Source: Paractinoplanes lichenicola (GTDB lineage Bacteria; Actinomycetota; Actinomycetes; Mycobacteriales; Micromonosporaceae). Taken from it: a stretch of DNA of 64,000 nt. Position 1 is the stretch's first letter, and every line of letters starts with the position of its first letter. A program made the position numbers and the translations under genes. Location: assembly GCF_016785085.1 (NCBI RefSeq), contig NZ_JAENHO010000020.1, positions 1 to 64,000 of the forward strand. The letters are read 5' to 3'. Under the pieces are notes generated by a model. It was given only the letters and a program-made list of their open reading frames with translations. It was not told the DNA's origin and did no database searches. Shown piece by piece: positions 50,322 to 64,000 of this stretch.

Positions 50322-50395
<74 letters not shown>

Positions 50396-50400
50396 CATGG

Positions 50401-50427: not shown

Positions 50428-51002
50428 CATTTGCCAGCGTAACTGCCTTCCGATCTCCGTGACACGCATTTTTGCCCGAACGCGCGTACGGTTTACGCGT
50501 CTGTTGTTGATCGGCTCCTCCTTTCCTACCCGTGGCGCGGTGCTGCTTCGGGCACCGCTGTGGTCCTGCTCTCCTGGAATGTGGCGCTGAGCTGGTGAAA
50601 CGTGTCCGGAGGCGCCTGGCTTTCAGGACTTAGGCGGTCGCCGTGGTTGCCGGCGTCTGTCGATGTCTACTGTGGATTATCGTGACACCTGAGTGACACG
50701 AACGCTCGTACGGTGATCTTTGCTTGGTGCTTTGGCCGGGCCGGTGAATCCATGATTGCGCTTGGCGGCGAGGTGCGGGTTGTCGGCCGTGGGAGAGTTT
50801 GTCGGTGCCGACCGTGCACGTAGAGCGATAGCGGGTGGCTATCGCAAGGGGTAGGCCGTAGCGCGGCATGCTTGCCGCCGCTGTCGTCGACGCGGCCACG
50901 GTGCCCGGTGCGTAAGCCGGGCACTGCCGCCCCGCGGATCTACCCGCGTGCCGTCGTCGCGGCGGACGCCGAGACTTGACCGTCGTTGCGACACTTCACT
51001 CG
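50428..51002. other. Gene-poor stretch at the start of the accessory region
   Basis: About 575 bp with no supported gene. It contains two similar words, GACACGCATTTTTGCCCGAACG (50461) and GACACGAACGCTCGTACGGTG (50695), each near CGTACGGT. Short open frames on the minus strand are low complexity. It may contain the remains of an integration event next to the tRNA, but no copy of the tRNA 3' end is seen. Confidence 0.4.
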
Positions 51003-52502
51003 ATGGATCCGCTGAGAGATTTTGGGCGCAACGACCCGTGTTGGTGTGGTGCGGCCCGCAAGTACAAGGCTTGTCACGGACGGCATCAACCGCCGTCCGT
51101 TCCCGGTCAACCGATCGTGCATCCTGACGACGCAGACCGCGTGTGGTTGTCGCCGACCACTTCAATGACCCGTGACGCCCTCCGGCGTCCCGATGCCGGT
51201 GTCCCTCTGGTCCTGCCGCTCGGGCGGCCACAGAGCCGCCCGGTCGACATCGACCCCGCCGTTCAGGTGCTGCTGGACGCGCCCCGGTACACCACGCAAC
51301 CGCTTCCGGTTCTGGGTAAACAACGCTTCGAGGTTTTCGACCACACGCAGCACGACCGTGATGCCCTGGCCGACGGCGTCGCCGATATCGCCGTTGCTGT
51401 TTCTCAAGCTCTTGGCGAGCTGGACCTTCGGCCCGGGGGCCGGCCGACGATCCTCTGGAACGACGAGGTCGATGCCGCCCGGTTCGTAGGTCAGACCCTG
51501 CTGTTCGCCGATCATGTCTGCGTCCCCGACCGAGTCTTCGCCGCTCTCATCGACGACCGAGACGACGATACGGTCCGCGAAGCGATCGCCGAACAGCGCC
51601 GTCTTCGCCCGCTTATCGAAGCCGGCGTCGTCGTGCCTGTCCCCGAAGCGCTCGGCGTCGCCGCTCAAGCCGGGGCTGTCGACGCGATGACCCAACGCGA
51701 CCTGCGGCGTCGCGATCTCACCGATTGGGTGCGCAGCCAGCTCATCGTCGAAGGCCCCACCGCCCGCGAGGCGATGTTCATCAACGCGATCGACGACTTC
51801 GACTCCGGGCAGATGTGGCTGCTGTCGCGGCGCACCGTCGTCAACGAGCAGCCCGACGGCCGGAACGCTTTCACCGCCGATCTCCTCGGCAACTACGACC
51901 CCGCCCACGACTACGACCCTTGGAAACAGCAGAACCTCGACAAGGCCGTCGGCGAGTACCTGCGGCATGCCAACGAACGACTCATCGCCGGTAAAGTCTT
52001 CGCTGCCGACTACCTCACCACCTCGCCCTTCCGGGCTCGGCTTCTCGCCCGCAAGGGCGCACTGCCCGATCAACCGATCCACTCTGCGGTCTGGGCTGAC
52101 ATCCCCATCCTGCCCGGCGCCGATCCCGCCACCGTGGCCCGCGCTGCCGCTGAGGATGAAGCCGTCGAGGATCTTCGCCAGAAGGTCCGCAACGCTCTGC
52201 GCGGCGCTCGTGACCTCGGCGCCGGCGCTGACGCCCTTACCGGGCTCGGTGACGAACTCGCCCACGCCAGCCGCAAACTTCAAGCCGCTGTCCACACCGA
52301 GCGCCGCTGGAAAGTCCTCGTCCCCGCCCTTGCCGGACTCGGCGCCATCGCCCTGGGCGCGGCGGGCCCCGCGGCCATCGTTGGTGGCGTCCTGAGCGTG
52401 GTCGGCGGGCTTGTGCCGAACTTGGCCGACAGCGCGGCGCGACGGCGCGAGGCAGCCTACCTGTTCTATCTGGCCAACCGGACCCCTCGACTCCGGCGTT
52501 GA
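51003..52502 (+). CDS. SEC-C motif protein with C-terminal membrane hairpin
   Basis: A 499-residue protein. At the extreme N-terminus, GRNDPCWCGAARKYKACHG (residues 8-26) is the SEC-C zinc knuckle (C13, C15, C24, H25) known from the SecA tail. The ~400-residue central part is unrecognised. Residues ~439-473 (VPALAGLGAIALGAAGPAAI and following) form hydrophobic helices. ATG 51003 is preferred to TTG 50976 because the knuckle then lies at the N-terminus; neither has a Shine-Dalgarno sequence. Stand-alone SEC-C proteins occur in defence islands, but the role is unknown. Confidence 0.75.
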   Translation: MDPLRDFGRNDPCWCGAARKYKACHGRHQPPSVPGQPIVHPDDADRVWLSPTTSMTRDALRRPDAGVPLVLPLGRPQSRPVDIDPAVQVLLDAPRYTTQPLPVLGKQRFEVFDHTQHDRDALADGVADIAVAVSQALGELDLRPGGRPTILWNDEVDAARFVGQTLLFADHVCVPDRVFAALIDDRDDDTVREAIAEQRRLRPLIEAGVVVPVPEALGVAAQAGAVDAMTQRDLRRRDLTDWVRSQLIVEGPTAREAMFINAIDDFDSGQMWLLSRRTVVNEQPDGRNAFTADLLGNYDPAHDYDPWKQQNLDKAVGEYLRHANERLIAGKVFAADYLTTSPFRARLLARKGALPDQPIHSAVWADIPILPGADPATVARAAAEDEAVEDLRQKVRNALRGARDLGAGADALTGLGDELAHASRKLQAAVHTERRWKVLVPALAGLGAIALGAAGPAAIVGGVLSVVGGLVPNLADSAARRREAAYLFYLANRTPRLRR

Positions 52503-53036: not shown

Positions 53037-53744
53037 TTGGTAACTGCCCAGCCGACGGTGAAGGTGGACGGCGTGGCTCTGCTCGATCGATTCGACAAAG
53101 ACGCGGAATCCGTGTTCGCGGAAATAATCGAACGCGCCGGACACCCGGTTCAGCTCCGCGATGTCCGCGACGTGATCGTCCGCGCGGGTGCCGATCCTGC
53201 CACCGTGAACCGCCGATGGAAGTCGACGCAGAAAAGGCTCGCCGAGCATCCACAGATCGTCCGGCCGGACAAGACTCATTACGAATGGTCGCCCGTCACA
53301 GTCACCTCGGGACAAGCGCTGACCGAGCTGACCGGCCTGGCCCTGAAATCCAGCCGCAGCTGGATCGTGCAACCGTATGTCAAGGCGATCAAGAATGTGC
53401 TGGCCGCCGTCGAGAACTCGGGTCCTAGAGCCAGGCCCGATTGGACTGAGCAGAGCACACGGGAGAAGGTCACACTGCTGGCCGACGTCGTGGCAGGCGC
53501 CGACCAGCTCGCCGCCGAGGACCAGAAGGCCCCCGAGATCGTGGCATGGCTGATGCGTGAAGCCCAGGACAATCGGCTGGACGTAATCGGTCCCGTCGGT
53601 GCCACCGTGGACTTCACCACCGAGCGGCACGAAGGAAATGCCCGCGCCGGAGAGCGCGTCAGAATCAGGCGCTGCGGATTCATCTGGACCGGAATAGGCA
53701 AACCGATCGTCGTCCTCAAGGCGCAGGCCGAACCGGTTTCCTGA
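53037..53744 (+). CDS. Hypothetical protein upstream of the DUF262 gene
   Basis: A 235-residue protein. The N-terminal part (AESVFAEIIERAGHPVQLRD through NRRWKSTQKRL) looks like a winged helix-turn-helix; the middle has two helices (ELTGLALKSSRSWIVQPYVK); the C-terminus is beta-rich. The start is uncertain: TTG 53037, GTG 53058, or GTG 53073, the last with AAGGTGGA four bases upstream. It ends 17 bp before the DUF262 gene and probably works with it. No family is recognised. Confidence 0.65.
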   Translation: MVTAQPTVKVDGVALLDRFDKDAESVFAEIIERAGHPVQLRDVRDVIVRAGADPATVNRRWKSTQKRLAEHPQIVRPDKTHYEWSPVTVTSGQALTELTGLALKSSRSWIVQPYVKAIKNVLAAVENSGPRARPDWTEQSTREKVTLLADVVAGADQLAAEDQKAPEIVAWLMREAQDNRLDVIGPVGATVDFTTERHEGNARAGERVRIRRCGFIWTGIGKPIVVLKAQAEPVS

Positions 53745-53761: not shown

Positions 53762-55924
53762 ATGTCCGGATCATCACATCCGAAGAAGATCGTGCAGGCC
53801 GGACCCGCGACAGTGCGCATGCTTTTCGAGGGAAATGCTTACGGTCTTGGCTATTTCCAGCGCCGCTACGCCTGGGAGAGACTCCAGGTCGAAAAACTGA
53901 TGCTCGACCTGGTCAAGAAATTTGAGCGGGAATGGCAACAGAACCACCAGGTTGCCGACGCCATGACCTACGAGCCCTATTTTCTCGGCTCGGTCATCAC
54001 CTATCGCCGCGCCGACGGGAAATACCTGGCCGATGGGCAACAACGGGTAGTCACCCTCCTGCTTTTGCTGATCCGGCTCTACCACCTGACGTCGTCGCGC
54101 GAGGACACCAGGGACCAGAGCGCTCACCTGCGGACGCTGATTCTCGGCGGCGACCCCGTCAGACGACAGTTCACTATCACCGACATCGGTTATCGTGCCT
54201 GCTTTAACGACCTACTTAACGGAAAGGAGTTCGGCGCGTACGGCGGCCCGGACGTCGTCCGGGTGTTCCAGGCCTACCAGGACGTCACCCAGTTCTGTCT
54301 GCAGAACCTGCCAGGCGAGGCGCTACCGAACTTCGTCACCTGGCTGCTCGAACGGGTATCACTCGTCGAACTCGACGCCGGCGACCCCGACCGCGCACTC
54401 GAGATGTTCGTGGCGATGAACGACCGCGGCGTCCGACTCACCCCACTCGACCTGCTGAAACAGTACCTGCTCAGCGACGCGCTACCCGATCCGGGCGTGC
54501 ACGACGCCGGCTGGCAGTCCATGCAGGCCACCCTCGACGCCGTGGCGAAGGACGCGACGCTCGACTTCGTACGCGGCGTACTGCGAGCGCACTACTTCCA
54601 CCTGCACCCCGACGACGGTGACGGCATCACCCTCGACGAGGCACCGCACGAATGGCTCGTGCGGCACGAGGACGCGATCTGGCCGCGCTACAAGACAGGC
54701 GACCACGCCACGCTCTTCACCGAGGAACTGCAGCCGCTCTACCCGTTCTACGCGGATCTGCTGCGCTGGGCCGCCGCACCGGTAGACGGTCACCTCGGCA
54801 CCTGGTTCAACACCTCCAATGGCATCATCCGGCAGTTCGACCTCACGATGGCCGCCATCCGATCTGGCGACGACGAGGACGTCATGCACCGGAAGGCCAC
54901 CCTGGTCGCCAACTTCCTCGACCTGTTCGTCGTCACCCGTGGCCTGGTCGCAGAGAACTACGGGCAGGCCGAGATCGACGAACTGGTCGGCGAACTGCGG
55001 CCGGCGGTGCGCGAATCCCGGACGGTGCATGACCTCGCCGTCGCCCTGGGAAAAGCCGCAGCCGAGTGGTACCCGCGTTTTGGCGGCGTGCTGACGCTGC
55101 GCTACCGCGAGCGCGGAAACAGGCCTTTCGTCGTCTATTTCCTCGCCCGGCTGACCGCCTGGTTGGAATCACGCACAGGCCGCGGCGACCGCGCCGTGCA
55201 CATGCTTAGCCATATCGACGGCCGAGGCCACGAGGTCGAACATCTCTTCACCAGTAGGCACGCCGAATACCGCGACCCACTCCCCGACGGCGACGCCTAC
55301 TCTCGCCAGCGCAGCCGGCTGGGCGCCCTGGTTTTGCTGGAAGGCTCGGACAATGCGAGCCTCGGTGCCCTGCGCCTTGCCGACAAGCTCAGTGCATACC
55401 GCAGCCATTACCTGCTGGCCGGCTCGCTGCACCCCGACAGCTACGGGCGTGGTGAAGTACGGTTCCGCCGGTTCCGGGAGGACGAGAACCTCGACTTCCG
55501 CGCCTACGACGAAACCGTGCCCATTCCCGAGTTCGTGGAATCCCGTAGCCGGTTGTTCAAGGCCATGGCCGAGAAGATCTGGGCGGCGGACCGGCTCGGC
55601 CTTATCCTCCCTACAGAACCGGCCGCCGCGTCAAGGGCCAGGCCGCGGAGAAGGTCGCGCGTCACCCTCGCCGAACTCATCCGAGAAGGCATGCTCGCTC
55701 CCGAGACGGGCCTTGCAGGCATGCGTAACCGAAAAATGTTCCGCGCGACGCTGCTCGGCGACGGCAGAATCCGCACCGCGAGCGGCGAACCTTTCCCTTC
55801 CCCTACCGCCGCGGCCGAAGCGGTCCTCGACGGAAAATCCGCAAACGGCTGGACCTTCTGGCGCATCGGTGAGGGGAAGGAAACTCTCGCCGAGGTGCGG
55901 ACGAGATACGAGCGCCGTCGCTGA
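53762..55924 (+). CDS. DUF262-DUF1524 (GmrSD-like) protein with C-terminal RAMA-like domain
   Basis: A 720-residue putative modification-dependent restriction enzyme. The N-terminal DUF262 (GmrS) domain has YFQRRYAW (Q33-W38) and the DGQQR motif (91-95), the NTP-binding ParB-like core. The GmrD part (DUF1524) has the HNH-like motif HEVEH at 490-494 followed by an Asn/Lys-rich end. Residues ~634-720 (VTLAELIREGMLAPETGLAG, ending NGWTFWRIGEG) match the RAMA domain found in restriction/methylase-linked proteins, which binds modified bases. A GmrSD-RAMA fusion in one chain points to a Type IV restriction function. ATG 53762 with GGGGGA upstream. Confidence 0.82.
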   Translation: MSGSSHPKKIVQAGPATVRMLFEGNAYGLGYFQRRYAWERLQVEKLMLDLVKKFEREWQQNHQVADAMTYEPYFLGSVITYRRADGKYLADGQQRVVTLLLLLIRLYHLTSSREDTRDQSAHLRTLILGGDPVRRQFTITDIGYRACFNDLLNGKEFGAYGGPDVVRVFQAYQDVTQFCLQNLPGEALPNFVTWLLERVSLVELDAGDPDRALEMFVAMNDRGVRLTPLDLLKQYLLSDALPDPGVHDAGWQSMQATLDAVAKDATLDFVRGVLRAHYFHLHPDDGDGITLDEAPHEWLVRHEDAIWPRYKTGDHATLFTEELQPLYPFYADLLRWAAAPVDGHLGTWFNTSNGIIRQFDLTMAAIRSGDDEDVMHRKATLVANFLDLFVVTRGLVAENYGQAEIDELVGELRPAVRESRTVHDLAVALGKAAAEWYPRFGGVLTLRYRERGNRPFVVYFLARLTAWLESRTGRGDRAVHMLSHIDGRGHEVEHLFTSRHAEYRDPLPDGDAYSRQRSRLGALVLLEGSDNASLGALRLADKLSAYRSHYLLAGSLHPDSYGRGEVRFRRFREDENLDFRAYDETVPIPEFVESRSRLFKAMAEKIWAADRLGLILPTEPAAASRARPRRRSRVTLAELIREGMLAPETGLAGMRNRKMFRATLLGDGRIRTASGEPFPSPTAAAEAVLDGKSANGWTFWRIGEGKETLAEVRTRYERRR

Positions 55925-56025: not shown

Positions 56026-56613
56026 TCACTTATGTGGGGTGGCCGCTGCGAGCTTGGGCAGGACGTAGGTGAACTCTTTTCCGCCGCGTTCAGCGACACC
56101 GTGCTGGCGGATGAGTGCGCGGGCGCTTACGAGTTTTTTGAGGCGGTTATTTGCGTTAGGCGCGCTGATATTAAGCTGTGAGGCGGCGTTCATGGCTGTG
56201 AAGGCGCCGACCCTGCGTGCGAGTTCCTGTGCGAGTTCGAACGTTTCGGTAATGACGTTCGATGCGGCGAGCAGTGTGACGGCGCCCAATCGTTCTTCAG
56301 CGGCGATGAGGTCTCGGCGTTGGAGGCATATGTCGATGGTCTCGCGCAGTTCTTCGTGGAGCCCGGTGAGCGCAACGACTGCGGGGAGAGCGTCGCGGCC
56401 AGCGAGCGCGCTGTAGTACTCGCCGAGAAACTCGTCAGCGAAGCTGATGGTCATGGCGACGACGCCGTCGAAGTCGATGATGACGGTCTCTGTGTTCTCT
56501 GGCGTCTCGTCCTGCAGATCGCGCAAAGTGCGCTTGGCGAGGTCGCGCGTGGTCAGGAAGTCCTTGACCTTCGCGACGGGGAACGTGAACGGTGCGGCGG
56601 GTTCCGGTTTCAC
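56026..56613 (-). CDS. STAS-like (DUF4325) and winged-helix protein
   Basis: A 195-residue protein. TVIIDFDGVVAMTISFADEF matches the DUF4325 STAS-like domain (DF-G-V...SFADE). A second part (AFTAMNAASQLNISAPNANN, then RLKKLVSARALIRQHG) looks like a helix-turn-helix. GTG at 56613. It follows the GHKL ATPase gene by 28 bp on the same strand, a pairing seen in phage/defence contexts. It may transduce the ATPase state to DNA binding. Confidence 0.78.
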   Translation of the reverse strand: MKPEPAAPFTFPVAKVKDFLTTRDLAKRTLRDLQDETPENTETVIIDFDGVVAMTISFADEFLGEYYSALAGRDALPAVVALTGLHEELRETIDICLQRRDLIAAEERLGAVTLLAASNVITETFELAQELARRVGAFTAMNAASQLNISAPNANNRLKKLVSARALIRQHGVAERGGKEFTYVLPKLAAATPHK

Positions 56614-56641
56614 TTGACAGATTGAAACACGATACGCACGG

Positions 56642-57541
56642 CTATGGAAGGTGGACGCGCAGCGACGCCCAGGTGCCGTCCAGTTGGGTGGCCACTGAGT
56701 TGCACAGGGTGGGGCGATTGCCGTCTAGTTCGACAACCGCTACGGCGCCGCTACTGCGAAGCGTGAGACGGCCGCCTCCGCCGCGCGTGGCGTAGTGGCC
56801 AAGGTTGCCGAGTCCGTTGCCCCTCCCTCCGACTGAGTCGATTTCGCTCGAGGTCAACGCTCGCTCGAGGGCGCGTTCCAGTGCGGAGGGGCCGTCATTG
56901 ATGTTTTGGTGGCGTGCGCTGGTCCTGAGGTGTTCGAGGACGCCAACGCCTGAGTCGCAGACGGCCACCTCCAGGCCTGGCCTTCCGCTCGTAGCGCCGG
57001 AGTACAGCTGAGCTGCCACGAAGGCGTCAGCGCTGCTGAGGCCGTGCGTGGTGGCATTGAGGATGAGCTCGCCCACGCTCTGGTAGACGGCGGTGCCGAT
57101 GCGCATACCAAATTTCCTGATCGCCACTTGACCCAGGGCTCGCGCAACATCGTCAGCGTTACTCGGCGTCACCTTGGTGACCTCAAGCAGTGTTTCCGAC
57201 CGGTCCTTCCGGTTCTGCAAGACCTGGGGGCCCTCGACCTTCGCCACCGTGCCGAGGTGTTCGGTCACGTTCATTCGGGTCAGGTACGACGCGACGTTCT
57301 GGTCGTAGGGCGGGAAGAGGGTTACTTTGCGATTCTGGTACGCCGCCCAGGTGCCCATGCTGACCATCGCGGCGAGTTCCAGCGGTCCGGCGTGCTGAAG
57401 GCACGCAGCGTCCAGCACGAGGGTGTTCTGATCGTCGACATAGTCGGCCTGCAACTCGGCGCGCAGCAGCGGTTTGCGACCAGACAGCCGAATGAGCACG
57501 ACATCCAGCATCTCAGGCCGGCGACCGATCGCCAACTTCAC
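56642..57541 (-). CDS. GHKL-type ATPase with N-terminal STAS-like domain
   Basis: A 299-residue protein. Residues ~10-100 resemble a STAS domain (TLVLDAACLQHAGPLELAAM). The GHKL ATPase has N-box ELILNATTHG (158-167), G1 CDSGVG (195-200) and G2 GGRGNGLGNL (238-247). There is no phosphoacceptor His or kinase dimerisation domain, so it is an ATPase or sensor and not a classic histidine kinase. GTG at 57541. Head-to-head with the ubiquitin-like operon. Confidence 0.82.
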   Translation of the reverse strand: MKLAIGRRPEMLDVVLIRLSGRKPLLRAELQADYVDDQNTLVLDAACLQHAGPLELAAMVSMGTWAAYQNRKVTLFPPYDQNVASYLTRMNVTEHLGTVAKVEGPQVLQNRKDRSETLLEVTKVTPSNADDVARALGQVAIRKFGMRIGTAVYQSVGELILNATTHGLSSADAFVAAQLYSGATSGRPGLEVAVCDSGVGVLEHLRTSARHQNINDGPSALERALERALTSSEIDSVGGRGNGLGNLGHYATRGGGGRLTLRSSGAVAVVELDGNRPTLCNSVATQLDGTWASLRVHLP

Positions 57542-57560: not shown

Positions 57561-57589
57561 TTGACAGCAAGCCTTCAGCGGTTTAAATT
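57561..57589 (+). promoter_or_regulatory. Sigma-70-like promoter of the ubiquitin-like operon
   Basis: TTGACA at 57561-57566, 17 bp, then TAAATT at 57584-57589. The AT-rich -10 stands out in this GC-rich genome. Transcription would begin near 57596, leaving a ~60-base leader with AAGGAG at 57644-57649 before the ATG at 57656. Confidence 0.75.
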
Positions 57590-57655
57590 TTCCAAATGAA
57601 ACCGCCGCCCGGCGGGATTTACCGGGCGAGAGCCCTTGTCTCTAAGGAGTGCCCG

Positions 57656-57937
57656 ATGGTACTGCCAACGCAAACCGACGCGGACCGTCACGGCGGTCAC
57701 GATCACGACCGGCCGATCACCCTCAAGGTCGACGGGGAACGGATCACGGTCCGCGTCGACCGGATTACCCCGAACGAGATCCTCGTGAGGGCGGGGATCG
57801 ACCCGGCCTCTCATTACCTGGTGGAGGTCAAAGGCCGCGAGTAGACGTCCTACGAGGGGCGCGGAGACACCGCCATCCGGGTCCACGACGGAGACAAGTT
57901 TGTGTCGGTCTCGACCGGCCCGACCCCGACGTCATGA
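57656..57937 (+). pseudogene. Ubiquitin-like (multiubiquitin-domain type) protein with an in-frame amber codon
   Basis: ATG 57656 has a near-perfect AAGGAG six bases upstream. The first 62 codons read a His/Asp-rich leader and a beta-grasp half (ITLKVDGERITVRVDRITPN, then ASHYLVEVKGRE). TAG is at 57842-57844. The same frame then continues for 30 codons with TSYEGRGDTAIRVHDGDKFV and STGPTPTS, matching the second half of the multiubiquitin family, and stops at TGA 57935-57937, forming an ATGA overlap with the E2 gene. With the TAG read as Gln (CAG, one base away) the protein would be 93 residues. Interpreted as a nonsense mutation, read-through site or error. There is no terminal Gly-Gly. Confidence 0.82.
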
Positions 57938-58299
57938 CGATTACCGAGCCGAATGTGGGCGCGGCGGGCTTCGTCGCCGCTCTCACGGCCTCTGGCCTTT
58001 GCGCGAGCGAGCGAATCGCCGAAGGACGCACGTTCGCGGTCTTCCTCTACACGATCGAGGTCGGCTCCCGCGCGGGCGAGGAGATCGAGGTCGGCCTGGA
58101 GATCCCAGGCGACTGGCCGATGTCACCGCCGTCCGGCCCACATCTGCGGCCCAGCCTTGACCACCCGCACGGCGCCGTCCATCCCTCCCCGCTCGGGCCG
58201 GACTGGGCGTACTGGAGCCGACCGGCCTACCAGTGGCCAGCTGACCGGACCGTCCGCGGATATCTGCGCCACCTGCGCACCCTTGTTTCCCAGATTTAG
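57934..58299 (+). CDS. E2/UBC-like protein of a prokaryotic ubiquitin-like system
   Basis: A 121-residue UBC-fold candidate. The beta-meander (TFAVFLYTIEVGSRAGEEIE) leads to EIPGDWPMSPPSGPHLRPSL, the Pro-rich turn of E2 proteins, then GAVHPSPLGPDWAYWSRPAY and a terminal helix (TVRGYLRHLRTLV). The only Cys is residue 23, before the core; no Cys is at the usual active-site position, so thioester transfer by the normal route is doubtful. ATG 57934 overlaps the TGA of the ubiquitin-like frame. The next gene follows by nine bases. Confidence 0.8.
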   Translation: MTITEPNVGAAGFVAALTASGLCASERIAEGRTFAVFLYTIEVGSRAGEEIEVGLEIPGDWPMSPPSGPHLRPSLDHPHGAVHPSPLGPDWAYWSRPAYQWPADRTVRGYLRHLRTLVSQI

Positions 58300-58308
58300 G
58301 AGATAGAC

Positions 58309-59850
58309 ATGTCGACCATGACGAGCGCCGTGCCGGTCGATACGGCGTTCGGTGGGCCGGCGCGGACCTGGTCGGTGGTCATGACCACCGACCTCGCCGC
58401 CAGCCTGACCGAACACCTGCACCGACACGACGGCCAGGAGGATCTCTGCTTCCTGCTCTGGCGGCCCAGCACCGGCGCCACCCGCTCCACCGCGATCATC
58501 ACCGAGATCGTTCCACCCGGAGACGGCGACCGTCAGGTGCACGGCAACGTCTCCTTCAACGCGCCATACTTTCTCCGCGCCGCCGCGCGCGCCTCCGAAA
58601 CGGGCTGCGGCCTCGCGCTGATCCACACCCACCCCCGCGGACGCGGCTGGCAGGATCTCAGCCCCGACGACCACGCCGCTGAGGCCGGCCACGCTGGGCA
58701 GACCACCGCTATCACTGGCCTACCCTTGCTCGGCCTCACCTTCGCCAGTGACGACCACAGTTTCAGCGGCAGATTCTGGCAACGTGCCGGTCGCCGTCGA
58801 TACGAGCCCGCGTGGTGCGACAACGTCCGACTTGTCGGCGACCGAATCGCGGTCACCTGGAACGACCGTGCACGACAAGTACCTCGTTCGAGTAGCCGAC
58901 AGGCCCGCACCATCTCCGCCTGGGGGCCAGACGTGCAGGCCGGACTCGCTCGGCTTCACATCGGTGTCGTAGGCGCGGGCAGCGTCGGCGTACTCGTCGC
59001 CGAGGCTCTCGCTCGAGTCGGGGTCGAGCGGGTCACGCTGCTCGATTTCGACACCGTCGAAATGCTCAACCTCGACCGGCTGCTGCATGCCCGCCAGCGC
59101 GATGCCGTCCTCGCCCGGGCCAAAGTTGATGTCCTTGCTCGCGCGCTACGGCACTCCGCCACCGCCGAACGAGCGCAGATCCGCGGCCTTGACCTCTCGG
59201 TCGTCGAACCCGCAGGCCTTGCCCAGGTACTCGACTGCGACGTGGTGTTCTCGTGTGTCGACCGGCCCTGGCCACGCTCGGTACTCAACCTCGTCGCCTA
59301 CGCCCACCTCATCCCGGTCATCGACGGCGGCATCCTCATCCGCGCCGGAAAACACGGCCTGAACGGCGCCGAGTGGCGCGCGCACCTTGTCGCGCCCGGC
59401 CGACGCTGTATGGAGTGCCTCGGGCAGTACGACCCGGCTCTCGTTGGCGCCGAACGTACCGGCATGCTCGACGAGCCTGCCTACATCACCGGCCTCGACC
59501 CTGACCACCCGCTACGCCGCAACGAGAACGTCTTCCCGTTCTCAATGGCTGCCGCCAGCAACGAGGTCTCGCAACTTCTCACCGCAGTTATTGCGCCGAG
59601 CGGGATCGGCGACGTCGGTGCGCACCTTCACCACTTCACTACCGGTGTGCTCGATCGTGACACTAAGAACTGCGAGCCCGGGTGTCCCTACAGCACAACC
59701 CTTCAGGCCACCGGCGACCATCACGGCCTCACTGTCACCGGCCGGCACCGAGCTGCCGAGCAGGCCCGCGTACTCCGCAACGACGCAGGGCGTCGACTCC
59801 GTGTCCGCCTCGGGCGATACCTCGACGATCACCTCACGAGGATGCTGTAG
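58309..59850 (+). CDS. JAB-E1 fusion: JAMM isopeptidase domain plus ThiF/E1 adenylyltransferase
   Basis: A 513-residue fusion. The N-terminal JAB/JAMM domain (~20-150) has the zinc motif LIHTHP (His106, His108) followed by LSPDD (Ser118, Asp121). The E1/ThiF domain starts at ~215 with GAGSVG (222-227), VTLLDFDTVEMLNLDR and the Arg/Lys adenylation residues. Two Cys pairs, CMEC (367/370) and CEPGC (455/459), form the usual zinc knuckle of E1-like enzymes. Predicted to activate the ubiquitin-like protein at its C-terminus and to trim or remove it. ATG 58309 has AGGAG upstream. It occurs in defence-associated ubiquitin-like operons. Confidence 0.9.
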   Translation: MSTMTSAVPVDTAFGGPARTWSVVMTTDLAASLTEHLHRHDGQEDLCFLLWRPSTGATRSTAIITEIVPPGDGDRQVHGNVSFNAPYFLRAAARASETGCGLALIHTHPRGRGWQDLSPDDHAAEAGHAGQTTAITGLPLLGLTFASDDHSFSGRFWQRAGRRRYEPAWCDNVRLVGDRIAVTWNDRARQVPRSSSRQARTISAWGPDVQAGLARLHIGVVGAGSVGVLVAEALARVGVERVTLLDFDTVEMLNLDRLLHARQRDAVLARAKVDVLARALRHSATAERAQIRGLDLSVVEPAGLAQVLDCDVVFSCVDRPWPRSVLNLVAYAHLIPVIDGGILIRAGKHGLNGAEWRAHLVAPGRRCMECLGQYDPALVGAERTGMLDEPAYITGLDPDHPLRRNENVFPFSMAAASNEVSQLLTAVIAPSGIGDVGAHLHHFTTGVLDRDTKNCEPGCPYSTTLQATGDHHGLTVTGRHRAAEQARVLRNDAGRRLRVRLGRYLDDHLTRML

Positions 59851-59995
59851 CGACTGCACTGATGCAGGGCGCTCCTACGGGGAGCAACACAGCGAGACCT
59901 ATGAGCCTTGATTGGCTGTCGGCTGCAGGGCGGTGGTCGGTTCGCCGAATCGAGTAACGTCGTGGATCGACAACGGTCTGACGCCGTCGTCCAAC

Positions 59996-61969
59996 ATGGC
60001 TATCACTAGCAGGAGCGTGGTCTTGCCGTACATGTGCCGAGTCACCATTGCTGGTCCTGAAGCTGACGATGGCGGCGTTTCCACGTTGATCGATGCAGTT
60101 GCTGATGCTGTCAAGAACGGTTGGGACGCGCCGCTGGTTTACGACGACGAGTCCGACGATGAAATGGGCGATGAAGAGTCTTCTGGCGGGGAGGTCCTCG
60201 ATCATCGGATCCTGGGGTATCCGGGAGGCGCGATCGTCCTGGTGGTCTTGGACTGCGACGACTTCATGCAGGCGTCGGTCGTCATTGCCGCGCTGGCGCG
60301 GCATCTCACCAGTTGGAGCCCGGCTTTACTTGAATACGCTCCGAGCGGGCTTGAGATCTCTCCACTCGACAAGCCCTATGACGAGGACAACTGGCTTCCC
60401 CCGATAGCCGACGAGGAATCCGACCCGCGACCACGCTGGCCCCTGTCGGCGCTGCTCGACGAAAACGTGAAGGAGCTGGCAGGGCAGTACTTGCTGGCCG
60501 CCGCCATCCGAGCGATCTGGCATCCCACCGAACGCGCGCATCGTGACCCGACTGACGATATCGTCGCCGGATCCGTTGAGTATCCCTGGGGAACCGTACT
60601 GTCTCGTGCGCTCGGCATTCTGCTCATCCGTGCCGCCAGGTTTGAGAGTCAGCGAGGCTCACAAGCCAAACTGATCGTCCACGGCTCGGGCGACCTCGCC
60701 CTGGCAAACGATCTACTTCAGCGGGCGCGACAGACCGGCGACGAGGACGACGACGGAGATGATTTCGACGAAGAAGAGTTAACAGACGACGCGATGCGCG
60801 GGCACGTTCTCGTCGAGGACTTCATGGAGGCGCACGACCTCCAATGGAACCGTGTCGCCGATGACGAAAGATCCGAGGAACCTGAGGCACGCAGTAACCG
60901 CCAGCTGAGGATCTTGCTGTGGGCTGGGCTTCGGGCAGCAGCCACGTTGTGCGTGCCGCTCGCCTCCCTCAGCGGGCCTTGGCAGGTCCTAGACCAGCTC
61001 GGCGACGACGAGGTTGTCTCCCTTTACGCCGAGCAGGAAGAGGAAGACAACGAGACAGCCGCGAAAGACGACGACGCCGACGTGTATTCCGCCAGCGCGG
61101 CGCATGTCCTTGTATGGCTGGCGATCCGCCATCCTGACCTGCTCGAAAGCCGAGCCGCCGGAACCCTGATCGCGGATACCGCCGACGATGTCACCGCCTT
61201 TCACCAAGTCTTCAACGCCACCATGGTGATGGCGGGCTATGAATCCCTGAAGACAGCGCTGGCGCAGCAGCGGATCCCTGCCCGCCTGCGCCCCGGCATC
61301 GACACTTACGCCGCGGCGCTGTCGGAAACCGAACGGGACGACCCCGACGAAGACGCGGATGCCTACAACGACATGCACCTGGCTTTAGAAGCGGTGCTCG
61401 CAGGCGGCCCCGGTATGGCCAAACGCATTCGGTTCCTGCTCACCGTCCTCGGGGCGGCGGTACGGACAGCCGATTCTGGCTCGCGCTCCACGGATGGAAC
61501 CCCAGCGTCAACACCGCGTTCGATCACCTACTACTTGCTGATCGAGCCGTCCATGCATTCGGCAACGGTCCTGCACCGAGACAACGACGACGCCGCGATC
61601 CGCGCCGCCATGCTCGGCTTGGCCGCGCAAGTATCGCCCCTCGCGGCGGCAGGCCTGATCGCAGAGCTACCTGGATTGACCGGAGACGACCCTCGCCTAG
61701 AACCCGCCGCACTCACCAGAGCCACAACCTGGGTACAAGAGGCCGTGCAAGTCGCTCAGCAGCACGGCTACCCTGTAGACGCCATCGACAACGGCACGGG
61801 ACAGGCTGCTGACGCGCAGGAAGTGATCAATGCGATCTCCGTGCATGGGTGTCTACCGCCGGAGTGGCCCGTGCACCGGGTCGTCCCCGCGGCTGCCTAC
61901 GCGGCCGCCGCAATCTTGCATGCATCCGAGACTGTCGGCCGGGCTGGCGAAGTCTTCACCGAAAATTGA
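59996..61969 (+). CDS. Large acidic protein of unknown function
   Basis: A 657-residue protein, mostly helical, with several acidic linkers (GDEDDDGDDFDEEELTDDA near 250, QEEEDNETAAKDDDADV near 350). It has no signal peptide or recognised motif. The start is uncertain: ATG 59996 lacks a Shine-Dalgarno sequence; ATG 60032 is the next. It lies 145 bp after the JAB-E1 gene on the same strand and could be the substrate, effector or an unrelated cargo gene. Codon use is less GC-biased than the backbone. Confidence 0.7.
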   Translation: MAITSRSVVLPYMCRVTIAGPEADDGGVSTLIDAVADAVKNGWDAPLVYDDESDDEMGDEESSGGEVLDHRILGYPGGAIVLVVLDCDDFMQASVVIAALARHLTSWSPALLEYAPSGLEISPLDKPYDEDNWLPPIADEESDPRPRWPLSALLDENVKELAGQYLLAAAIRAIWHPTERAHRDPTDDIVAGSVEYPWGTVLSRALGILLIRAARFESQRGSQAKLIVHGSGDLALANDLLQRARQTGDEDDDGDDFDEEELTDDAMRGHVLVEDFMEAHDLQWNRVADDERSEEPEARSNRQLRILLWAGLRAAATLCVPLASLSGPWQVLDQLGDDEVVSLYAEQEEEDNETAAKDDDADVYSASAAHVLVWLAIRHPDLLESRAAGTLIADTADDVTAFHQVFNATMVMAGYESLKTALAQQRIPARLRPGIDTYAAALSETERDDPDEDADAYNDMHLALEAVLAGGPGMAKRIRFLLTVLGAAVRTADSGSRSTDGTPASTPRSITYYLLIEPSMHSATVLHRDNDDAAIRAAMLGLAAQVSPLAAAGLIAELPGLTGDDPRLEPAALTRATTWVQEAVQVAQQHGYPVDAIDNGTGQAADAQEVINAISVHGCLPPEWPVHRVVPAAAYAAAAILHASETVGRAGEVFTEN

Positions 61970-62106
61970 CGTCTGCATCGTCGACAGAGCACTCCGGTCA
62001 ATGTGGTTCTGGTCCTCTCCCGATCGAGTGACATCGGCGCGCCCGTGGGTTGCCGATCCTTGATCGGCTCGTTGGTCAAGGTGAAGGTTCCTCTTATCTG
62101 GGAGCC

Positions 62107-63261
62107 ATGACTGGAGCGGAGGTGCGGGCCGTGTCCGATACCGAAGCGATTGTTCAAGACCCGGTGACAGGGCTGTTCGGGTTCCGGCTGGAGATGGGCC
62201 GTGACAACGAAGGGACTCGGGTGCAGGCCCGGCGGTCCGGCTTCACCACGGCGAAGGCGGCGAAAACTGAATATGAGCGGCTGTGCCGGCAGCGGGACGC
62301 GCAGCACCCGAAGCCACGACTGAGTGACAGTGTGCAGACCGTTTGTGAGAGCTGGGTGCTGTCCCGGGAGCAGGAGCTTGAGCCGAACACGGTATACGGC
62401 TACCGGTGGCTGTTCGGTCTGATCTACCCGTACGTGGGTGGCGTGCGCGCCGGACGGCTCAGTGCCCGGATGGTCGAGCGTGCCTATCGGGAGTTGGAAG
62501 GCTGCGGTTACTCCCGTACCACCCTGCGGACGCTGAATCTGGTGTTGTCGAAGGCGTTCGTGGAGCAGGTCGGCCGGACCTTGGGTGCGCGTATGCCGCG
62601 CGAGAGCGACAAAGAGCGACCGGTGTGGTCGCTCGACGAGGCGCGGCGTTTCGGAGACCACGTCGCGGATGACCGTCAGTATCCGTTGTGGCGACTGCTG
62701 CTGGTGGCGGGGCTACGGCGCGGTGAACTGTGCGGTCTACGCTGCGGTGACCTCGAGCCGCTGCAAGGCACCCTGACCGTGCGGCGGCAGCTGGTGGTCG
62801 AAGATCCCCGAAGCCGACTTCGGGTGAAGCCGCCGAAGTCGCACAACGGTGTACGAACGCTGGTCCTCGATCCGGGGACACTCGAATTGCTCGGGCCGCT
62901 CGCAGCGGGGCCGGCGTCGCGATATGTGTTCGCCGGCCGCTGGGGTCAGCCGATCCGCCCGGACAACCTCACCGACCGGTTCAACCAGCTGGCCGCAGCC
63001 GCGAAGGTCCGGCCGATCGGCCCGCACCAGATCCGGCACCTGATCGCATCGACGCTGCTTGACGCCGGCTACGGCGTCCACGAAGTCGCTGAGCGCCTCG
63101 GCCACGATCCGACCACCCTCATGCGCTACTACACCCGAGTCAACGCGGCCAGGCGCCTGCAGGCCACGGACCGGATCGCTGAGCTGATGACAGCATCCAA
63201 AATCTCACCGAGGCCGCCGCGGAACTGGGCTAACGGCGCCACGAGCCTTCTCCTCACGTAA
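62107..63261 (+). CDS. Phage-type tyrosine integrase
   Basis: A 384-residue integrase. The N-terminal arm-binding-like domain (GLFGFRLEMGRDNEGTRVQA) and SAM-like core-binding domain (~75-165) precede the catalytic domain with Arg204 in AGLRRGEL, Lys in KPPKSHNGVRTL, His307/Arg310 in HQIRHL, His333 in LGHDPTT and Tyr342 in RYYTRV. All catalytic residues are present, so it is probably active. ATG 62107 has GGGAG upstream; a longer reading from 62050 is less likely. It suggests that the flanking 50-64 kb region is, or was, an integrative element. Confidence 0.92.
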   Translation: MTGAEVRAVSDTEAIVQDPVTGLFGFRLEMGRDNEGTRVQARRSGFTTAKAAKTEYERLCRQRDAQHPKPRLSDSVQTVCESWVLSREQELEPNTVYGYRWLFGLIYPYVGGVRAGRLSARMVERAYRELEGCGYSRTTLRTLNLVLSKAFVEQVGRTLGARMPRESDKERPVWSLDEARRFGDHVADDRQYPLWRLLLVAGLRRGELCGLRCGDLEPLQGTLTVRRQLVVEDPRSRLRVKPPKSHNGVRTLVLDPGTLELLGPLAAGPASRYVFAGRWGQPIRPDNLTDRFNQLAAAAKVRPIGPHQIRHLIASTLLDAGYGVHEVAERLGHDPTTLMRYYTRVNAARRLQATDRIAELMTASKISPRPPRNWANGATSLLLT

Positions 63262-63396: not shown

Positions 63397-64000
63397 TCAG
63401 TCGTCGTCCTCATCCGCTTCCGCACGAAGCTGAGCGGCGTGGGTTGCTGCCCACGACTCGGCGGCCGTGAATGCTGCCTTCAAGTCCGGATCCGTCTCGG
63501 TGGCCGCTGCTTCGGCGGCGGCCACGCGAGCCTTATTGAGCTCGTCGGACACGCCGTTCGTGAAACCCCAACAGCTGAGCGTCATGGCGCCTGAGACGCC
63601 GGCAAGCACACGCACCGCCCGGTCGTCGAACTGGCGTGCCCGAATAAGGAGGCTTCTGGCCAGGTCGGGATGCTGCAAAGGCCACGTGCCGACGTCTCGC
63701 AGGGCGTTCGCCGTTCCCTCAACTGCGGCACCGTCGAACTTATCAACGGCTGCGGCTAGATGCTGCGCCTGAGCGGTCGTCATGCCGCTCCTCATGGCGA
63801 TCGACACGACAATCGACACGTTGTCGCCTTCGCCTCGATGAACGCGATCGACCACCCACCTCGCCAGCGCCTCGGCTTTGCGATCGAAGGCGTCCGCGAA
63901 GCCGTCAACCTCCGTCGGCGAGCGGACGCCGTCGTCGTGCAGGGCTTGAAGGTGGTCGAGGACCAGGCGCGGACGGGTGAGCGCTATGCCCGCGGCGATT
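63397..64000 (-). CDS. Hypothetical protein, 5' end beyond the window
   Basis: A reading frame open to the right edge; at least ~200 residues. The visible N-terminal part continues past a GTG at 63855 with protein-like sequence (DHLQALHDDGVRSPTEVDGF), so the gene starts beyond 64000. The protein is helical and ends with acidic LRAEADEDDD. It contains MTTAQAQHLAAAVDKFDGAA. No family is recognised. It is convergent with the integrase. Confidence 0.65.
   Translation of the reverse strand, partial: IAAGIALTRPRLVLDHLQALHDDGVRSPTEVDGFADAFDRKAEALARWVVDRVHRGEGDNVSIVVSIAMRSGMTTAQAQHLAAAVDKFDGAAVEGTANALRDVGTWPLQHPDLARSLLIRARQFDDRAVRVLAGVSGAMTLSCWGFTNGVSDELNKARVAAAEAAATETDPDLKAAFTAAESWAATHAAQLRAEADEDDD

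What the first reader, a model, noticed from the sequence alone, without database searches (positions are those of the whole stretch)
57561..59850. Complete-looking bacterial ubiquitin-like conjugation operon with its own promoter
Three consecutive genes encode a beta-grasp ubiquitin-like protein, an E2/UBC-like protein and a JAB-E1 fusion, behind a clear TTGACA-17-TAAATT promoter, with ATGA overlap and nine-base spacing. Comparative genomics (the prokaryotic Ub-like systems described by Iyer, Burroughs and Aravind) has linked such operons to defence. The context here (DUF262-HNH-RAMA, SEC-C, GHKL/STAS pair, tRNA, integrase) supports this.
Basis: partly seen in the sequence, partly recalled or inferred. 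Interest (0 to 1): 0.9.

Follow-up and report, generated by a model that had tools for sequence, protein, structure and literature searches.

The report
Bub ubiquitin-like operon with interrupted modifier
An Actinoplanes-like bacterium carries, on a mobile element with other defence-type genes, a known kind of bacterial ubiquitin-like operon whose small modifier gene is cut short by a stop codon as sequenced, next to an oppositely facing two-gene switch with its own pair of DNA sites that is also found beside other immune operons.

Summary
The three genes, promoter hexamers, ATGA overlap and nine-base gap are there. But the first gene is not open: the Ub-like (UBL) frame 57656-57937 has an in-frame TAG at 57842-57844 (62 of 93 residues; strand b5 and C-terminus lost). 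Of 81 loci compared, only the window has a stop in this domain; no second UBL and, by pattern scan, no amber-suppressor tRNA were found. The operon is a Bub operon (type 6e of Iyer 2006; JAB-E1 matches Citrobacter BubCD, the E2-like protein matches BubB and has no conserved cysteine): a new member of a known kind and, as sequenced, probably inactive. The more interesting part is its control. The STAS-wHTH and GHKL genes are CapS-like and CapK-like, but the kinase lacks the N-terminal HTH and the pair is divergent from the operon. A palindrome, GTTTMA-N10-TGAAAC, lies on the operon's -10 and on the capS start, and nowhere else in the 10.67-Mb genome. Six family relatives have the same pair of sites beside divergent Bub-, Bil- or CBASS-like operons. 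All lies in a 17.5-kb tRNA-Pro element. Damage induction and conjugation are inferred from published relatives; Bub has not been shown to protect against phage.

The parts
50354..50396 (+). attL: 3' 43 bp of tRNA-Pro(GGG) 50322-50396; perfect copy at contig position 67793-67835 (attR, outside the window)
50976..52502 (+). SEC-C motif protein (context, inside the element)
   Evidence: Pfam SEC-C 1.3e-08
53762..55924 (+). DUF262/GmrSD_N - RAMA protein, type IV restriction-like (context)
   Evidence: Pfam RAMA 5.4e-22, GmrSD_N 2e-20; PADLOC HEC-06 3.4e-25
56026..56613 (-). CapS-like repressor: STAS (DUF4325) + winged HTH, conserved Ser57
   Evidence: Pfam DUF4325 1.3e-05; PDB 9z71 3.5e-06 and 9z72 9.3e-04, which are E. 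roggenkampii and V. cholerae CapS; alignment A5
56642..57541 (-). CapK-like GHKL protein (no N-terminal HTH), divergent from the operon
   Evidence: alignment A4 with invariant E158/N162 in 5 of 5; Pfam HATPase_c_2 only 0.028, below cut-off
57561..57589 (+). promoter hexamers TTGACA-17-TAAATT
57581..57602 (.). predicted operator 2, GTTTAA-N10-TGAAAC, overlapping the -10 hexamer
57656..57937 (+). bubA-like UBL frame, interrupted by TAG at 57842-57844 (62 of 93 residues translated)
57934..58299 (+). bubB-like E2/RWD-fold protein without a conserved cysteine
58309..59850 (+). bubCD-like JAB-E1 (JAMM-like HxHP..S..D; ThiF-type adenylation domain)
62050..63261 (+). tyrosine integrase of the element
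   Evidence: Pfam Phage_integrase 1.7e-17
63397..64000 (-). C-terminal part of a 1365-aa Mrr - nSTAND protein (contig 63397-67494), inside the element

Best explanation
This is a Bub (bacterial ubiquitination-like) operon, bubA-bubB-bubCD, carried with other defence-type genes on a 17.5-kb integrative element in tRNA-Pro of an Actinoplanes-like actinobacterium. An intact operon would then make BubA, adenylate its C-terminus with the E1 part of BubCD, and with the cysteine-less BubB attach it to targets, the JAB part trimming or removing it. In this genome as sequenced the modifier is truncated by a recent nonsense codon, so the switch and the enzymes remain but conjugation should be blocked. 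Shown here: gene content, homologies, the stop, the pair of sites and the element. Inferred: repression, the signal, conjugation, and loss of function.
For: JAB-E1 matches Citrobacter BubCD over residues 23-423 of 513 (5.2e-24); the E2-like profile matches BubB (0.0059) and its model (pLDDT 93) has BubB 9eae_C as best fold hit (prob 0.99, TMq 0.59, but Foldseek E 0.058); the UBL model matches 8u38 bacterial multi-ubiquitin (3.4e-4) and BubA 9ea8_B (E 3.9e-3, TMt 0.72). Profiles for UBL, E2-like and E1 each hit 81 of 81 loci, chosen by their E1; gene order matches type 6e (PMC1779556 section 14). In-frame stop in the UBL domain: 1 of 81, the window; one UBL in the genome. The frame after the stop is still conserved against L016 (dN 0.09, dS 0.59), so the stop is recent. 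Operator pair: 2 sites in 64 kb (0.32 expected), the only 2 places in 10.67 Mb with reversed-pattern control 0, 0 in 824 kb of 80 Bub loci, two each in L114-L117, L119, L120; arms 0.94 and 1.0 identical over four loci against flanks 0.33 and 0.51. The STAS-wHTH protein matches solved CapS (9z71, 3.5e-06). Published CapK/CapS: PMC13373217.
Against: The UBL profile did not find BubA in the PDB by sequence (22 hits, all TAL effectors, spurious). The E2 fold match is above E 0.001. The kinase is below the Pfam cut-off, finds no convincing PDB chain, and lacks the published N-terminal HTH; its STAS part was not tested, and the residue W68 that the published CapK needs for ssDNA could not be placed. 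The sites differ from the published TTAA sites. Of the 80 Bub loci only L028 has the pair, and there it is co-directional. L125 has one site only. A wrong base in the assembly cannot be excluded.
Confidence: 0.77

Rival explanations
1. The TAG is a sequencing or assembly error; the living strain has an intact, working Bub operon under the same switch.
For: Single base; the frame beyond it is conserved with dN/dS about 0.15; E2-like and JAB-E1 frames are open; one assembly only.
Against: Isolated substitution errors are uncommon in such assemblies (general knowledge); no reads were available.
Confidence: 0.17
2. The TAG is read through (near-cognate decoding or a suppressor), giving a low or conditional supply of full-length Ubl.
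For: Frame conserved on both sides of the stop and to the ATGA overlap.
Against: TAG in 1 of 81 loci only; L016-L024 have a Gln codon there; none of 7 pattern matches for a CUA-anticodon tRNA was one by ARAGORN (a pattern scan, not a full tRNA scan of the genome).
Confidence: 0.04
3. Sulfur-carrier (ThiS/MoaD-like) pathway, not conjugation.
For: E1 domain is ThiF-like (NCBIfam ThiF 3.3e-18, far below its cut-off).
Against: JAB fusion and E2/RWD-fold partner; read-through UBL ends in TPTS, not GG; BubCD is the best solved match; no NCBIfam cut-off reached among the 25 shown of 38 families.
Confidence: 0.02

Closest known systems
Bub operon (Citrobacter BubA/BubB/BubCD; PDB 9ea4, 9ea5, 9ea8, 9eae, 9eav) = type 6e of Iyer 2006 (PMC1779556)
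   Same: Ubl, cysteine-less E2-fold protein and JAB-E1 fusion in this order; JAB-E1 similar to BubCD over 400 of 513 residues
   Different: Single Ub-like domain, interrupted by a stop; JAB-E1 keeps a CxxC (C367/C370) where the aligned BubCD stretch has none. That Bub equals 6e is my inference from the matching layout
CapK + CapS (Enterobacter roggenkampii; PMC13373217)
   Same: STAS-wHTH protein with conserved Ser next to a GHKL protein beside an immune operon; two palindromic sites, one at capS and one on the operon's -10; half-sites 10 bp apart as in its wide site
   Different: Kinase without N-terminal HTH; pair divergent from the operon; half-site GTTTMA/TGAAAC instead of TTAA
VapKSC (PMC13373217)
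   Same: GHKL kinase described without an HTH
   Different: [quoted passage not shown] no VapC seen next to the pair here
Bil (BilABCD) and type II CBASS Cap2/Cap3
   Same: Ubl/E2/E1/JAB themes; relatives of the same control pair sit beside Bil- and CBASS-type operons
   Different: Separate JAB and E1 genes (Bil) or E2-E1 fusion with a cyclase (CBASS) (recalled)

Membership tests
Bub / operon type 6e | E1-like enzyme with JAB at its N-terminus | tested here: met
   BubCD match over 23-423; ThiF 5.4e-27, Prok-JAB 0.014 below cut-off; H106, H108, S118, D121 invariant in A1, 5 of 5
Bub / operon type 6e | gene for 1-3 Ub-like domains in the first position | tested here: met
   homologous frame with 1 domain, but interrupted
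Bub / operon type 6e | E2/RWD-fold protein without catalytic cysteine between them | tested here: met
   46 of 80 relatives have no Cys in this domain at all
Functional Bub pathway | intact Ubl open reading frame | tested here: not met
   TAG 57842-57844
Functional Bub pathway | Ubl conjugation to targets | not testable with these tools
   needs biochemistry
CapK + CapS | STAS-wHTH protein with conserved serine | tested here: met
   Ser57 invariant in 5 of 5 and aligned with a Ser of 9z71 at chain position 56 (published number 54; the shift may be a tag, not checked)
CapK + CapS | capK immediately followed by capS | tested here: met
   56642-57541 then 56026-56613, both on the minus strand
CapK + CapS | CapK = HTH-STAS-GHKL | tested here: not met
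   the longest ORF adds only about 16 residues before the start shared by L114, L115 and L120; L117's longest ORF runs further, across the site; Pfam shows no HTH and GHKL only below cut-off. Therefore called CapK-like
CapK + CapS | immune operon downstream, same direction | tested here: not met
   divergent
CapK + CapS | TTAA half-sites in both promoters | tested here: not met
   GTTTMA-N10-TGAAAC instead
CapK + CapS | ssDNA-activated kinase | not testable with these tools
   needs biochemistry
Bil | separate E2, JAB and E1 genes (BilB/C/D models) | tested here: not met
   no PADLOC family for the E2-like protein; JAB and E1 fused; the 25 shown of 33 PADLOC hits for JAB-E1 are all E1-E2 models

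The most novel reading that the evidence does not exclude
A portable, divergent immune switch: an HTH-less CapK-like kinase plus a CapS-like repressor with two GTTTMA-N10-TGAAAC operators, exchanged as a cassette between Bub, Bil and CBASS operons in actinobacteria and recognising a different operator from the published CapS. Here it still guards a Bub operon whose modifier has recently been knocked out, so the strain may keep a damage-inducible BubB/BubCD pair without its Ubl.
Probability: 0.65. Interest if true: 0.6.

Novelty: new variant of a known kind. Interest (0 to 1): 0.5.

Why it matters
It moves the finding from 'complete ubiquitin operon' to a Bub operon with an interrupted modifier, which matters for anyone choosing it for experiments. 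It also gives a precise, testable operator and a divergent layout for CapS-type control across three immune operon types, so that one reporter could test whether different Ub-like systems answer the same signal.

Tried and rejected
Sulfur-carrier reading: rejected. Conserved or programmed amber: rejected, 1 of 81. Suppressor tRNA: a first pattern was too strict; a wider one gave 7 places, of which ARAGORN calls one a tRNA-Gln(TTG) and none of the other 6 a tRNA. Second UBL gene in the genome: none. BubA by sequence in the PDB: none, only spurious TAL-effector hits. GHKL protein in the PDB: nothing better than E 0.61. Window neighbours around the 80 other Bub loci: STAS in 1 (L028), GHKL-like in 1 after profile search (L028), DUF262, SEC-C, ORF53037 and ORF59912 in none, integrase in 3. 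Virus contigs: 1 weak partial match. tRNA end repeated inside the window: none; the copy lies at contig 67793. The Bub papers Ye 2026 and Gong 2025 are not held; I saw only their references and what PMC13373217 says of them. Rows dropped: only the best 80 of 184 confirmed genome contigs relatives were held and compared; L118 (broken capS, no capK, no sites), L121 and L124 (partial CapS matches) are not counted as intact pairs; L125 has one site with one mismatch. In one search six E1 rows show a stop: two lie well inside (L041, L091), four at the end of the aligned stretch, which I took for the gene's own stop (L028, L040, L072, L075).

Full report
What is there. The host genome has 10.67 Mb in 35 contigs. 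A genome of the same genus (G258) carries L004 on a contig of the same length, 23647 bases, as the one that genome contigs names Paractinoplanes rishiriensis (L087), so I take the host as Actinoplanes-like. Close relatives of this JAB-E1 are uncommon nearby: 3 of 67 genomes of the genus at E 1e-40 and 13 of 300 of the family at 1e-20, the host included in both.

The modifier gene is interrupted. The Ub-like frame from ATG 57656 runs to TGA 57935-57937, but codon 63 is TAG (57842-57844). A profile search with stops read as X found UBL, E2-like protein and E1 in 81 of 81 loci (window plus 80 relatives picked by their E1); a stop inside the UBL domain occurs in 1 of 81, the window. For comparison, 2 of 81 E1 frames have a stop well inside (L041, L091), and four more show one at the end of the aligned stretch, probably the gene's own. 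L016 (by alignment) and L017-L024 (by motif) have a Gln codon at this place. Against L016 the 30 codons after the stop show dN 0.09 and dS 0.59, the 57 before it dN 0.48 and dS 0.69: the part beyond the stop was under constraint until recently. The predicted fold (read through; pLDDT 79, pTM 0.59) has the b-grasp order of strands, with the stop in strand 62-65, so strand 80-86 and the tail are lost. The genome has no other UBL of this family, and no amber-suppressor tRNA was found by pattern.

What the operon is. JAB-E1 matches Citrobacter BubCD over residues 23-423 of 513; the E2-like protein matches BubB by profile (0.0059) and by fold (first of 128 hits, prob 0.99, E 0.058); the UBL matches a bacterial multi-ubiquitin structure (8u38) and BubA by fold though not by sequence. 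Iyer and colleagues described this layout in 2006 as their fifth type, 6e: one to three Ub-like domains, an RWD-like E2 fold without the cysteine, fused or standing between the two other genes, and a JAB-E1 protein (PMC1779556; section 14 and passages seen). 8 of 80 relatives have UBL and E2-like in one frame, and 46 of 80 E2-like domains have no cysteine at all. 39 of 80 UBLs end in TPVS, TTVS or TPTA, 44 with the fused ones at the same point, and none of the 80 in Gly-Gly.

The switch. The minus-strand pair upstream is CapS-like (9z71, 3.5e-06, and 9z72; these are E. roggenkampii and V. cholerae CapS) and CapK-like. CapK and CapS were reported in 2026 as an ssDNA-activated kinase and a repressor of Bub, CBASS and other operons: 443 capK, all followed by capS, 231 with Bub (PMC13373217; abstract, sections 7, 9, 14 and passages seen). 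The words 'divergent', 'bidirectional', 'orientation', 'inverted' and 'TTTCA' do not occur in its main text; its datasets and figures were not seen. In the window the pair is divergent from the operon and the kinase has no N-terminal HTH. The inverted repeat GTTTCA-N10-TGAAAC occurs twice in 64 kb with up to two mismatches, at 56607-56628 (capS start) and 57581-57602 (on the -10), against 0.32 expected; 3 of 100 shuffles reach two matches. In the whole genome the pattern GTTTMA-N10-TGAAAC is found at these two places only, with 0 for the reversed control.

Relatives of the switch. Of 300 family genomes 9 have a CapS match, the host included. Of the 8 others, 6 have an intact capK-capS pair (L114-L117, L119, L120), all 6 divergent from an immune-type operon and all 6 with exactly two sites in about 12 kb, at capS and before the divergent operon. 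L118 has a broken capS and no sites; L121 is a partial match without sites. The divergent operons: Bil in L115 (BilB 3.5e-49, BilD 1.7e-130; its JAB was not scanned), with similar ORFs in L116 and L119, these two not scanned; Bil-like in L114 (BilB 6.9e-4, BilC 2e-8, BilD 3e-10); Bub-like in L117 (UBL 9.1e-5, JAB-E1 2.8e-39 by profile, an unlabelled 128-aa ORF between); CBASS in L120 (cyclase 8.4e-109, HORMA 6.9e-71, TRIP13 6.4e-115). L115, L116, L117 and L119 share nearly the same sites and capS start, so with the window there are about four independent lineages. Over W, L114, L115 and L120 the arms are 0.94 and 1.0 identical, the spacers 0.35 and 0.58, the flanks 0.33 and 0.51. The strict pattern has 0 hits in 824,396 bases of the 80 Bub loci, so the sites follow the switch and not the operon. 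Of 394 class genomes 3 match, the host included: L125, from another family, is divergent from a Bil-like operon (BilC 1e-10, BilD 7.3e-7) with one site (one mismatch); L124 is partial, without capK. L028, the only one of 80 Bub loci with the pair, is co-directional, and its printed capS-bub spacer shows ATTTCA-N10-TGAAAT (read by eye).

The element. The last 43 bp of tRNA-Pro (50354-50396) are repeated without a change at contig 67793-67835: a 17.5-kb element with SEC-C, DUF262-RAMA, the switch, the Bub operon, ORF 59912-61969, an integrase and an Mrr-nSTAND protein; JetC2 and JetD2 (Wadjet) genes lie beyond it.

Mechanism, shown and inferred. Shown: sequence, homology, predicted fold, stop, sites, element. 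Inferred from the published relatives: CapS represses both promoters, the kinase relieves it by phosphorylating Ser57, Bub conjugates its Ubl. That the truncated Ubl cannot be conjugated is inferred from loss of its C-terminus. Whether Bub is antiviral is open: the authors of PMC13373217 write that protection has not been demonstrated.

Novelty. The Bub operon is a new member of a known kind. The divergent, HTH-less, differently addressed CapK/CapS-like switch is a variant that I did not see in the parts of PMC13373217 that I read. A search of the held library for CapK, CapS, STAS, Bub operon and CBASS (at least three of them) lists that paper alone; most subscription papers and preprints are not held, so a description elsewhere cannot be excluded.

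Noticed in passing
G000:C12:63397-67494 (window 63397-64000 in part): 1365-aa Mrr_cat + nSTAND NTPase protein inside the same element; no PADLOC family.
   Followed up: partly
G000:C12:67994-75876: Wadjet type II JetD2 and JetC2 genes outside attR, after ORFs that read like a tyrosine recombinase (by eye, not scanned).
   Followed up: partly
tRNA-Pro in genus genomes, e.g. G164:C9:69818-69862, G240:C31:61365-61408: Copies of the tRNA-Pro 3' end downstream of the tRNA in other genomes of the genus: a likely recurrent integration site.
   Followed up: no
L012 2600-3200: Repeats that look CRISPR-like directly after a distant UBL/E2/JAB/E1 cluster (seen only as repeated peptides in ORF translations).
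   Followed up: no
window 53037-53744: 235-aa ORF without Pfam family; weak PADLOC Cas11 match (0.0039), probably chance.
   Followed up: no
window 59912-61969: 650-685 aa ORF rich in acidic residues, without a Pfam, PADLOC or NCBIfam match, between the Bub operon and the integrase.
   Followed up: no
L118 3213-3881: capS split by a stop, no capK and no operator sites: a decayed copy of the switch.
   Followed up: partly
L039, L040, L041, L042, L052, L060, L072, L075: UBL fused in frame to the E2-like domain, so the UBL C-terminus is not free unless it is cut.
   Followed up: partly
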